Shown here: piece by piece, positions 11,483 to 60,378 of the stretch
Numbering within the stretch: the first letter of the stretch is position 1
Layout of the letters: the number at the start of each line of letters is the position of its first letter
DNA from: Allosphingosinicella indica
GTDB taxonomy: Bacteria > Pseudomonadota > Alphaproteobacteria > Sphingomonadales > Sphingomonadaceae
Reading direction: 5' to 3'
Assembly (NCBI RefSeq): GCF_900177405.1
Contig: NZ_LT840185.1
Span: 620,001-684,000, forward strand
DNA: 64,000 nt
Translations under genes and position numbers: made by a program
The notes under the pieces: generated by a model
What the model saw: the letters and a program-made list of their open reading frames with translations, nothing else
Told to the model about the DNA's origin: nothing
Databases searched by the model: none

Positions 11483-12672
11483 TTCACCACATAGGGAGAC
11501 CGGTGAAGATAGGGGTTTCGCCGCGTGAAGGCGAGGAGGAGGCCCATGCCGATCGACAGCGCGATCATCGACGATCCGCCGTAGGAGATGAACGGCAAGG
11601 TCATGCCCTTGGACGGCGCGATCTGGACGTTGACCGCCATGTTGATCAGCGCCTGCAGGCCGAACTGGCAGACCAGCCCGGCGGTCGCGAGCACCAAGAA
11701 ATTATCTTCCTCGTGCAGCAGCTTGATCAGCACGCGCGCGACGATCGCCATGTAGAGCGCGGCGATGGCGAGGCAGGCGATCATGCCGAACTCCTCCCCG
11801 ATCACCGAGAAGATGTAATCGGTATGCGGCTCCGGCAGGTGGAACTTGCGCGTGCCGCCGCCCGGCCCGAGGCCGAACAGCCCGCCCGCGGTCAGCGTCC
11901 TCAGCGCACTGTCCGTCTGGTAGGTGTCGACATCGCCCGCGCCCCCGAACAGGAACGCGTCGACCCGCACCGTCGCCACCGGATAGAAGAAATAGGCGAG
12001 CACCAGCGCACCGAGGCCGGCAAGCCCGATCAGGATCAGGAAGCGCATCGGCACGCCCGCCAGCGTCAGCAGCAGCACCCAGATCGCCGCGAAGATCACC
12101 GTCTCGCCGAGGTTGGGCTGCTGCATCAGCAGCACCGCGACCAGCGCGGTCAGTACGCCGGTCAAGGGCACGACCGGCAGGCTCGCATCCTTGGCGCGGA
12201 GCGACAGCAGCCAGGCGAGCGTCACGATGAACAGCGGCTTCAGGAACTCCGACGGCTGGAATTGCGCAAAGCTGAAGCCCAGCCAGCGCCGCGCGCCGTT
12301 CACTTCCTGGCCGATCACCGGCACCAGCATCAGGCAGAAGATGAAGAAGCCGGTGCCGATCAGGCACAGCCGCCGCGCGGTCGGCTTGGGCAGCATCGAG
12401 ACCGCGATCATCACCGGGATGCCGGCCATGATCCAGACCAACTGGCGGTAGAAATAATGGAGCGGCGCATAATGAATCGCACCGCCCGAATAGCGCATCG
12501 CGGCGGCCGGCGATGCGGCCGCGACGGCGACCAGGCCGATCGAGATCAGCACCGCGACCAGCAGCAGCAGGACGCGGTCGATCTCCCAGAACCAGCGCCC
12601 CATCGCGCTTCGGTCGGTCCGGCCGAACTTGACCGCCTGGTTCCGGCGCATATCCCCCCGCACCATATTCAT
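11467..12672 (-). CDS. ftsW: SEDS glycosyltransferase FtsW
   Basis: Septal peptidoglycan glycan-chain polymerase of the SEDS family, which works with the FtsI transpeptidase. 401 aa with about ten hydrophobic segments. Family-typical stretches are NGARRWLGFSFAQFQPSEFLK, QPNLGETVI, the periplasmic loop with GLGPGGGTRKFHLPEPHTDYIFSVIGEE and the C-terminal SKGMTLPFISYGGSS. The ATG at 12672 overlaps the murD stop (ATGA), and a second ATG lies two codons later. The cytoplasmic N-terminus is basic. Confidence 0.97.
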   Translation of the reverse strand: MNMVRGDMRRNQAVKFGRTDRSAMGRWFWEIDRVLLLLVAVLISIGLVAVAAASPAAAMRYSGGAIHYAPLHYFYRQLVWIMAGIPVMIAVSMLPKPTARRLCLIGTGFFIFCLMLVPVIGQEVNGARRWLGFSFAQFQPSEFLKPLFIVTLAWLLSLRAKDASLPVVPLTGVLTALVAVLLMQQPNLGETVIFAAIWVLLLTLAGVPMRFLILIGLAGLGALVLAYFFYPVATVRVDAFLFGGAGDVDTYQTDSALRTLTAGGLFGLGPGGGTRKFHLPEPHTDYIFSVIGEEFGMIACLAIAALYMAIVARVLIKLLHEEDNFLVLATAGLVCQFGLQALINMAVNVQIAPSKGMTLPFISYGGSSMIALSIGMGLLLAFTRRNPYLHRSPYVVKWSGR

Positions 12673-14075
12673 GCCAATGCCTCCACCGCCGCGCGGAACG
12701 CGGCACCCCTGGCTTCATAATCCTTGAACTGATCGAACGAGGCGCAGGCGGGCGAGAGCAGCACCACCTCCCCCGCATCCGCCGCCGCCGCCGCGTCGTT
12801 CACCGCCTGCCCGAGCACGCCGCTTTCGGTGACCGACTTCCCTGCATCGCGCAGGATCGCCGCAAACCGCGGCCCCGCCTCGCCGATCGTATAAGCTGCG
12901 CGGACATGATCGAAATGCGGGGCACAGGCGTCGAGATCGTCGCTCTTGGCGAGCCCGCCGAGGATCCAGTGGACCGACGGATAAGCGGCCAGCGCCGGCG
13001 CGGTCGAATCCGGATTGGTCGCCTTGCTGTCGTTGACGAACAACACCCCAGCCCGCTCGCGCACCCGCTCCATGCGGTTGGGCAGGCCCGGGTAGGACTT
13101 CATAGCTTCACGGATAATTTCTCCGCCTACGCCGAGCCTCACTGACGCCTGAATAGCCGCAAGGGCATTTTGCGAGTTGTGAGGTCCCTGCAGCGCTGGC
13201 CATTCTTGCTGCATCAACGTGTAACCGCCAACATGCCGGGGGGAGTCTTCACGCCGCGCATGGCGGAGGCGATTTGATATCGAGCGCGACGCCCTATCGG
13301 TACCCACCACAATTGCGTCATGACCGCCCGACTGCATCGCGAACAGTCGCTCTTTGGATCGCGCATAAGCCTCGAACCCGTCATAGCGGTCGAGATGGTC
13401 CGGCGTGATGTTGAGCAGCACTGCCACGTCGCAATCGAGGCTGTGGGTCAGGTCGATCTGGTAGCTGGACAGTTCCAACACATAGACACCGCCTTCGGGC
13501 AGCGGGTCCTGACCGAGGATGGGCAGGCCGATATTGCCGCCCATCGTGCTCGGCACGCCCGCGGTCTGGAGGATGTGGTGGACAAGCGCGGTGGTGGTCG
13601 ATTTGCCATTGGTGCCGGTGATGCCGACCACCTTGTGCGGCGGCAGCTCCGCGCGCGCCTGCGCGAACAGCTCGATATCGCCGATCAGCGGCACCCCCGC
13701 CGCCCGCGCCCTGGCCGCGATCGGGTGGCGGTTGATCGGAACCCCCGGCGAGACGACGACGCCGTCGAAACCGGTCAGGTCAATCTCGAGAGGATCGGCG
13801 AGCCGCACCAAATCCTCCCCGGTACGGGGAGGGGGACCGGCCGAAGGCTGGTGGAGGGGGGCGTGAGACCCGCTCCCAACCCCCTCCACCACGCCGCTTC
13901 GCGGCGCGGTCCCCCTCCCCGTTCCGGGGAGGATCTTTTCGCGCGCACCCTCGTCCGCGTCCCACGCCACCACCTTAGCGCCGCTCGCCGCCAGCGCTTC
14001 TACGGTGGCGCGGCCCGATCGGGCGAGGCCGAGCACCGCATAGCGTTTGCCGGCGAAGGCGCGCGCCGTGATCAC
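12669..14075 (-). CDS. murD: UDP-MurNAc-L-Ala--D-Glu ligase with an in-frame palindromic repeat insert
   Basis: Mur ligase that adds D-glutamate to UDP-MurNAc-L-Ala. 468 aa. The dinucleotide-like loop [15 protein letters not shown] is at residues 14-28, the P-loop GTNGKST at 154-160, then [13 protein letters not shown] and the C-terminal [15 protein letters not shown]. Residues 48-88 are encoded by a 123-bp palindromic repeat (13812-13934) lying in the first, UDP-binding domain after [10 protein letters not shown]. Without it the protein would be 427 aa, close to other sphingomonad MurD proteins. Catalytic motifs are intact, so the gene is probably functional. GTG at 14075 is chosen because GTGA overlaps the mraY stop. 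The stop overlaps ftsW. Confidence 0.96.
13812..13934. repeat. Palindromic repeat inserted inside murD
   Basis: A 123-bp inverted repeat bounded by ATCCTCCCC (13812-13820) and GGGGAGGAT (13926-13934). Each arm is itself a small hairpin: CCTCCCCGGTACGGGGAGG on the left and CTCCCCGTTCCGGGGAG on the right. The arms continue inward through GGGGGACC / GGTCCCCC to GTGGAGGGGG / CCCCCTCCAC, with an inner hairpin CGCCGC-TTC-GCGGCG. Its length is exactly 41 codons, and it is read as a Gly/Pro/Arg-rich segment of MurD. It resembles the short palindromes commonly found between genes in sphingomonads. Confidence 0.9.
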
Positions 14076-60256: not shown

Positions 60257-60281
60257 GGGCATTCGCTCCCAAGCCGTCATG

Positions 60282-60353
60282 CTGAACTCGTTTCAGCATC
60301 CATGCCGATGACGATCGCGATCGTCTCCAAGATGGACCCTGAAACGAGTTCAG
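60282..60353. repeat. Palindromic repeat after glnA
   Basis: Perfect 15-bp arms CTGAACTCGTTTCAG (60282-60296) and CTGAAACGAGTTCAG (60339-60353), extended on both sides by GTCA..TGAC and TCCA..TGGA with mismatches. In the loop is a perfect 16-bp palindrome GACGATCGCGATCGTC (60310-60325). This CATGCTGAACTCGTTTCAG type of element is widespread in sphingomonads (general knowledge). It lies between convergent genes. Confidence 0.85.
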
Positions 60354-60378
60354 GGTGACGGCCGAGGAGAGACGTTGG

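What the first reader, a model, noticed from the sequence alone, without database searches (positions are those of the whole stretch)
12669..14075. A 123-bp palindromic repeat has been inserted in frame into murD, an essential gene
The sequence shows an inverted repeat at 13812-13934 that is exactly 41 codons long. It begins precisely on a codon boundary (residue Ile48) and adds 41 Gly/Pro/Arg-rich residues to the UDP-binding domain of MurD. All catalytic motifs are present on both sides, and removing it leaves a protein of normal length (427 aa). Known parallels are the Rickettsia palindromic elements that insert into genes in frame. In sphingomonads such palindromes are normally intergenic. 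This may be a coding-tolerant mobile or repeat family, and it probably forms a surface loop.
Basis: partly seen in the sequence, partly recalled or inferred. Interest (0 to 1): 0.75.

Follow-up and report, generated by a model that had tools for sequence, protein, structure and literature searches.

The report
Palindromic mobile repeat inside murD
A short palindromic repeat sits in frame inside an essential cell-wall gene of a sphingomonad; such repeats have landed again and again in the same few protein loops, and they look like gene-less copies of a tiny mobile element that carries a DNA-cutting enzyme.

Summary
A 123-bp palindrome (13812-13934) adds 41 residues in frame to the genome's only murD. 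It is one of 7 full-length copies found here; 5 of the 7 lie in frame inside genes: murD, truB, ligD, rnr and a hyuAB-like gene. Sister species carry inserts at the same murD and truB sites. These are of several types, hardly more alike than other copies, and the murD family-A carriers are not a clade. A few loops thus seem to be recurrent landing sites.

New lead: two DUF559 (PD-(D/E)XK nuclease) genes here sit between such arms, one in a 446-bp element with matching outer ends. In the genus, 28 of 30 DUF559 loci tested (of 119 matches) have hairpin inverted repeats on both sides; controls 0 of 49, 0 of 28, 1 of 400. The murD repeat is probably a gene-less derivative. RAYT, the usual REP mobiliser, was not found here. 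Movement by DUF559 is inferred. In-frame palindromes are known from Rickettsia; I saw neither murD as a site nor the DUF559 link in what I read.

The parts
12669..14075 (-). murD, carrying the insert; only murD match in the genome
   Evidence: translation; TIGR01087 E 5e-106; single match
13812..13934 (-). 123-bp palindromic element (family A), read in frame as residues 48-88 (ILPGTGRG...GPPPRTGED)
   Evidence: 67 matches at E <= 10, both strands and fragments counted, in the own genome
13880..13934 (-). arm 1: outer hairpin plus inner hairpin, ending GGTGGAGGGG; like the arm beside the DUF559 gene at glyQ-glyS
   Evidence: arm structure
13812..13860 (-). arm 2, inverted; its peptide [16 protein letters not shown] resembles the C-terminal tail PLHQAAAGPPPRAGED of the DUF559 frame
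13861..13879 (-). short spacer between the arms; in the element at glyQ-glyS this place holds 348 nt with a DUF559 gene
13593..13619 (-). MurD ATP-binding motif (TGTNGKSTT), intact downstream of the insert
   Evidence: invariant in 21 aligned sequences

Best explanation
The 123-bp sequence is a non-autonomous mobile palindrome made of two inverted arms. Each arm has two short hairpins. The parent is a ~450-bp element in which the same arms flank one gene for a small DUF559 (Vsr-like, PD-(D/E)XK) nuclease. Copies insert at many places without target duplication. Being GC-rich they have few stop codons in any frame, so a copy whose length is a multiple of three can be read through. Selection then keeps only copies in loops that tolerate an extra ~40 Gly/Pro-rich residues, which is why the same few sites (murD, truB, rnr, hyuAB, ligD, coaBC) are filled repeatedly, at murD and truB by different element types. 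Shown: the family, the in-frame insertions, the shared sites, the arm-DUF559-arm architecture. Inferred: that the nuclease cuts and moves the element, that the gene-less form derives from the gene-bearing one, and that MurD keeps its function.
For: Family and in-frame copies. Shared sites: murD; truB; rnr; hyuAB, ligD, coaBC. Independence: elements at the same site in different genomes are 0.823 identical on average (28 pairs), other pairs between genomes 0.810 (5949 pairs), copies within one genome 0.855 (464 pairs); murD family-A carriers are not one clade (AU p 1.7e-6). Parent: 446-bp arm-DUF559-arm between glyQ and glyS with the same outer ends; a second pair at C1:908903-909339; in G006 a DUF559 gene lies between perfect 55-nt inverted family-A arms. 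Association: 28 of 30 DUF559 loci flanked by inverted hairpin arms versus 0 of 49, 0 of 28 and 1 of 400 controls. murD inserts of types A, B, C, D match DUF559 arms (scores 28-45, controls 11-13). Covarying inner hairpin (27 arms, 42 double changes vs 16.3 in shuffles).
Against: No movement was observed and no target duplication found (39 copies). DUF559 and the element do not always go together: G012 and G023 have DUF559 but no element match at E <= 0.001, G013 has 2 element matches and no DUF559. The 30 loci tested mostly carry type C/D arms; of three further held loci with a family-A element beside DUF559, one (G006) has inverted arms on both sides, one (G005) only on one side, one is cut by the contig end. 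At class level 12 of 21 DUF559 loci have the flanking repeat. The idea that the nuclease-tail frame is specially kept open fails: in copies outside genes all three frames have stops equally rarely (28, 28, 25 of 160). Genomes with RAYT have more element matches (p 0.011). Some inserts (G001, G070 murD; G005, G009, G019 truB) do not match DUF559 arms.
Confidence: 0.62

Rival explanations
1. Each site was filled once in a common ancestor. Elements were then lost in many lineages and homogenised within each genome by gene conversion, so they look independent.
For: The left insertion point in truB is the same codon in the family-A carriers and the same frame is used per gene; short remnants exist (truB G003, G011; perhaps murD G005); the close pair G014/G015 shares the hyuAB copy at 0.91 and G008/G004 the ligD copy at 0.90.
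Against: Different element types occupy the murD and truB sites; family-A murD carriers not a clade; same-site identity hardly above background; 15 of 26 genus genomes lack the murD insert.
Confidence: 0.25
2. A REPIN mobilised by a RAYT (Y1 transposase).
For: Two inverted hairpin units; 11 of 26 genomes have PF01797 and these have more element matches (mean 68 vs 29, p 0.011; match numbers are capped because at most 137 candidates per genome were scored).
Against: No PF01797 match in the own genome nor in carriers such as G011, G004, G017; of 10 RAYT loci only one has a weak element match, and most have other repeats at their flanks (GGGACAGT or GTGACAGT types).
Confidence: 0.1
3. Site-specific insertion: the nuclease recognises murD, truB and other sites, as a homing enzyme would.
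For: Repeated hits at the same codon; weak flank preference AR|ATCC...GGAT|YT in 39 copies with clean ends, of 113.
Against: Repeats of other kinds (CGTC-like and SPEPVEG-like, names recalled) use the same truB site; most of the 113 copies are elsewhere.
Confidence: 0.15
4. The 41 residues are an adaptation of MurD.
For: Inserts are kept in frame at this site in many species.
Against: Sequence, length and element type vary freely; 15 of 26 genus genomes have none.
Confidence: 0.03

Closest known systems
Rickettsia palindromic elements (RPE)
   Same: 105-146 bp palindromes inserted in frame in conserved genes, truB among the hosts; orthologous genes hit at the same places, for RPE-4/6/7 sometimes by different groups (PMC3767692, PMC2229807, PMC3733652: passages or one section read)
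   Different: GC-rich sphingomonad family with its own two-hairpin arms and a nuclease-bearing form; sequence relation to RPE not tested
GTAG/CGTC-tagged REPs (PMC3733652)
   Same: hairpin repeats with intragenic copies; truB hit in S. alaskensis and E. litoralis (section 15 read)
   Different: no GTAG or CGTC tag at the ends of family A; ~50-nt arms rather than 20-40 nt; the word murD does not occur there
REPIN/RAYT
   Same: paired inverted hairpin units and a dedicated DNA-cutting enzyme gene flanked by them
   Different: enzyme is PD-(D/E)XK (DUF559), not HUH/Y1; no RAYT match in this genome
MITEs
   Same: gene-less elements sharing terminal inverted repeats with a gene-bearing form
   Different: no target duplication seen

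Membership tests
Rickettsia palindromic element | 100-150 bp palindrome read in frame inside unrelated genes | tested here: met
Rickettsia palindromic element | sequence homology to RPE families | not tested
   no RPE sequence was fetched
REPIN/RAYT | RAYT (PF01797) in the genome | tested here: not met
   0 in own genome; control rings in 5 of 14
REPIN/RAYT | RAYT gene flanked by the same repeat | tested here: not met
   10 RAYT loci: one weak match, other repeats at most flanks
GTAG/CGTC REP | GTAG or CGTC tag at one end | tested here: not met
   ends are ATCC...GGAT in the aligned copies
MITE | terminal inverted repeats shared with a gene-bearing parent | tested here: met
   446-bp DUF559 element
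MITE | target site duplication | tested here: not met
   39 copies: flank matches of 2, 3 and 4 nt in 2, 2 and 1; about 2.6, 0.7 and 0.2 expected
DUF559-associated hairpin element (proposed here) | DUF559 gene between inverted hairpin arms | tested here: met
   28 of 30 genus loci, class level 12 of 21; own loci
DUF559-associated hairpin element (proposed here) | nuclease acts on the arms | not testable with these tools
   needs purified protein

The most novel reading that the evidence does not exclude
DUF559 genes with their hairpin arms are a distinct class of minimal mobile element: a ~450-bp unit coding one ~100-residue PD-(D/E)XK nuclease, whose gene-less derivatives are abundant GC-rich palindromes of sphingomonads and perhaps other Alphaproteobacteria. 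It is a second, RAYT-independent way to make REP-like repeats, and it repeatedly writes new loops into essential proteins.
Probability: 0.5. Interest if true: 0.87.

Novelty: new variant of a known kind. Interest (0 to 1): 0.8.

Why it matters
The R. japonica paper (PMC3767692, passages read) leaves open whether same-site palindromes are hotspots filled by different elements or one old insertion that diverged. Here several element types share the murD and truB sites, murD across several genera, which favours hotspots and makes the question testable. If DUF559 moves these repeats, a family annotated as 'unknown function' gains a role, and the source of palindromes in genomes without a RAYT is explained. 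The sites also mark loops in essential enzymes that nature shows will accept about 40 extra residues.

Tried and rejected
RAYT as mobiliser: no match in the genome, and RAYT flanks mostly carry other repeats. Rfam: no match in the window at gathering thresholds. Target duplications: none above chance. Special openness of the nuclease-tail frame: rejected, although by my count, 20 of 26 copies use that frame in the right half, or 8 of 12 distinct sites (23 of the 26 are internal, two lie at an N-terminus and one at a C-terminus). Structure model of MurD: tool switched off, so nothing here shows that the insert is a surface loop; only lists solved MurD relatives. Trees of the elements themselves were not attempted; only pairwise identity. 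The truB count was run before G014 was read as a decayed family-A copy and G008 as another type.

Full report
OBSERVATION. The palindrome lies at 13812-13934, in frame in murD on the - strand. The insert is residues 48-88 of 468. Its fold is far better than 200 shuffles, as RNA and as DNA. The genome (2,807,253 bases, one contig) has one murD match, so the insert-bearing gene must supply MurD; that it works is inference from the essential role of MurD (established knowledge).

FAMILY IN THIS GENOME. A search with the 123 bp gives 67 matches at E <= 10, counting both strands and fragments, among them 7 full-length copies at 76-100% identity. Contexts (names by NCBIfam): murD, truB, ligD, rnr and a hyuAB/caprolactamase-like gene, all inside the gene and in frame; one at the very start of a YbbP-like permease; one just upstream of paaB. 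The rnr match is just below its curated cut-off, and the hyuAB-like and YbbP-like matches are well below theirs. Three reading frames are used. Seven related elements with other end hairpins (L012-L018) look intergenic: no coding frame runs across them.

GENUS SAMPLE. A covariance model finds the element in 24 of 26 genomes of the genus at E <= 0.001 (at most 137 candidates per genome were scored, so numbers of matches are lower bounds) and in 51 of 119 genomes sampled from the family at E <= 1e-5 with stricter filters (43 of 96 genera). I classified 113 copies (7 own, the 26 loci L179-L204, and 80 fetched from its listed best matches) with a codon model trained on the window. 16 pass the strict in-frame test with 150-nt flanks and 17 with 240-nt flanks. 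I then read the spanning frames of 20 candidates, besides own copies and the G024 murD: 22 of the 113 are internal and in frame by this reading. With the murD copy of G011, which is not among the 113, that makes 23, and 21 of these 23 fall in six genes: truB 5, hyuAB 5, murD 3, rnr 3, ligD 3, coaBC 2; mfd and glyS have one each. Host names were checked by NCBIfam for most; truB and rnr of other genomes; hyuAB of G025, G014 and G015 by eye.

SHARED SITES. murD, 26 genus genomes: family A in G000, G011, G024; other palindromic types in G001, G002, G008, G010, G016 (the last partly masked); a solo hairpin in G021; a possible remnant in G005; none in 15; G022 unreadable. In the family, 146 of 149 genomes have a murD match. 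I fetched 13 places picked for broken or long alignments: 10 carry an insert at this site, G104 and G066 do not, G032 could not be read, and G077 reads oddly. This is a lower bound, not a rate; the ten lie in 8 genera other than that of the window. Named carriers include MAGs of Rhizorhabdus, Novosphingobium and Sphingomonas, S. prati and Sphingomonas sp. TREG-RG-20F-R18-01. truB, 24 of 26 genomes readable (G004 and G024 not): family A in 10 (two decayed), other repeats in 4, short inserts in 3, remnants in 2, none in 5. RNase R has at least three insert sites. Types other than A were assigned by eye from hairpins and peptides.

INDEPENDENCE. Mean identity is 0.855 within a genome, 0.823 at the same site between genomes and 0.810 for other pairs between genomes (464, 28 and 5949 pairs). 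Several nearest neighbours are copies of the same genome; against this, G014/G015 hyuAB (0.91) and G008/G004 ligD (0.90) are alike. On a MurD+TruB tree built without the insert columns, the three family-A murD carriers are not one clade (AU p 1.7e-6); the fewest changes are 3 for murD family A, 7 for three murD states and 8 for truB family A (before two truB recodings). Many branches are weakly supported (11 of 27 strong) and the outgroup is not one clade. Gene conversion is not excluded.

A NUCLEASE-BEARING FORM. Between glyQ and glyS two half-copies flank 348 nt, 446 bp in all. The pair is 52 nt with its flanking bases, 87% complementary, and has the outer ends of the murD element. The gene between them is DUF559 (E 2e-28, also similar to the MTES_1575 nuclease family). 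A second pair (34 nt, 97%) flanks a DUF559 gene at C1:908903-909339. The third own DUF559 gene has arms of another type. In the genus DUF559 gives 119 matches in 25 of 26 genomes. I tested 30 loci (the best of each of the 25 genomes and five more): 28 have an inverted repeat of score 16 or more within 200 nt on either side; L378 and L381 do not. Controls are 0 of 49 window genes, 0 of 28 truB/rnr/murD genes and 1 of 400 random stretches. Of three further held loci with a family-A element beside DUF559, G006 has perfect 55-nt inverted arms on the two sides (the far one part of a full palindrome), G005 has none on the other side, and G011 is cut by the contig end. In the class it is 12 of 21 (one of the 21 is of the same family; 8 weak matches among the 29 new loci were left out; shuffled flanks reach at most 12). 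murD inserts of types A-D match DUF559 arms at scores 28-45 against 11-13 for control stretches; those of G105 and G080 score 22 and 17 (controls 10 and 11); truB of G008 scores 16 (control 12); inserts of G001, G070 (murD) and G005, G009, G019 (truB) do not match (9-13). In 28 of 31 loci with a repeat (cut-off 13 here) the DUF559 frame runs into the downstream arm and in 26 through it, so the arm codes the tail of the nuclease frame: PLHQAAAGPPPRAGED in the own element, close to [16 protein letters not shown] in MurD.

ARM STRUCTURE. Each arm has an invariant outer hairpin and an inner hairpin whose pairs change together: 27 arms of one length class (2 of 29 with the 11-nt inner part, but of other total length, left out), 100% paired, 42 double changes against 16.3 in shuffles. 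The arms were selected by a sequence pattern that fixes the outer hairpin, so only the inner one is informative. Shuffles do not correct for relatedness. A hairpin read by a protein would give this.

AGAINST. No frame is specially free of stops outside genes, so read-through is explained by composition. No target duplication. RAYT-bearing genomes have more matches, perhaps through genome size. DUF559 presence and element number disagree in G012, G013 and G023. A Caulobacter DUF559 protein, VsrA, has been proposed as a mismatch-repair nuclease (PMC12907096, passages read), so a repair role is possible for some members.

LITERATURE. In-frame palindromes: RPE (PMC3767692, PMC2229807, PMC10969869: passages) and REPs (PMC3733652: section 15 and passages). 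The latter already reports truB as a host in S. alaskensis and E. litoralis, and RPE-1 in R. conorii truB. An RPE paper asked for by a recalled DOI is not held. Fourteen held papers contain the word DUF559; I saw their listing and opened one. The listings show no title or abstract start that links DUF559 to palindromic repeats. 'murD' does not occur in PMC3733652; it was not searched for elsewhere. Most subscription papers and all preprints are outside this library.

Noticed in passing
L032 (murD of G021): The murD site holds a near-perfect solo hairpin (AAATTCCTCCCC...GGGGAGGAATTT), a single arm hairpin or remnant rather than a full element.
   Followed up: partly
L063 (Sphingomonas sp. TREG-RG-20F-R18-01): Two murD N-terminal stretches lie near each other; one runs into stop codons among further palindromic sequence, the other reads through its insert.
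   Followed up: no
L338 (rnr of G018): RNase R carries two family-A inserts at different sites in one protein.
   Followed up: partly
L273 (glyS of G017): A second, shorter insert-like stretch (QSSPAFAGEGDQPKAGGG) upstream of the full element.
   Followed up: no
L169-L178: RAYT-like (PF01797) loci of the genus mostly have other repeats at their flanks, of GGGACAGT or GTGACAGT type.
   Followed up: partly
window 60263-60372: A 61-nt inverted repeat, 79% complementary, whose arms overlap (palindrome); not examined.
   Followed up: no
L414 (G266, 38% GC): A DUF559 locus in a low-GC genome has a 64-nt flanking inverted repeat, so the arrangement is not tied to high GC.
   Followed up: no
L298, L296, L299 (truB of G005, G009, G020): The truB site is also used by CGTC-like repeats (RHPGES-type peptides; name recalled); those of G005 and G009 do not match DUF559 arms.
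   Followed up: partly
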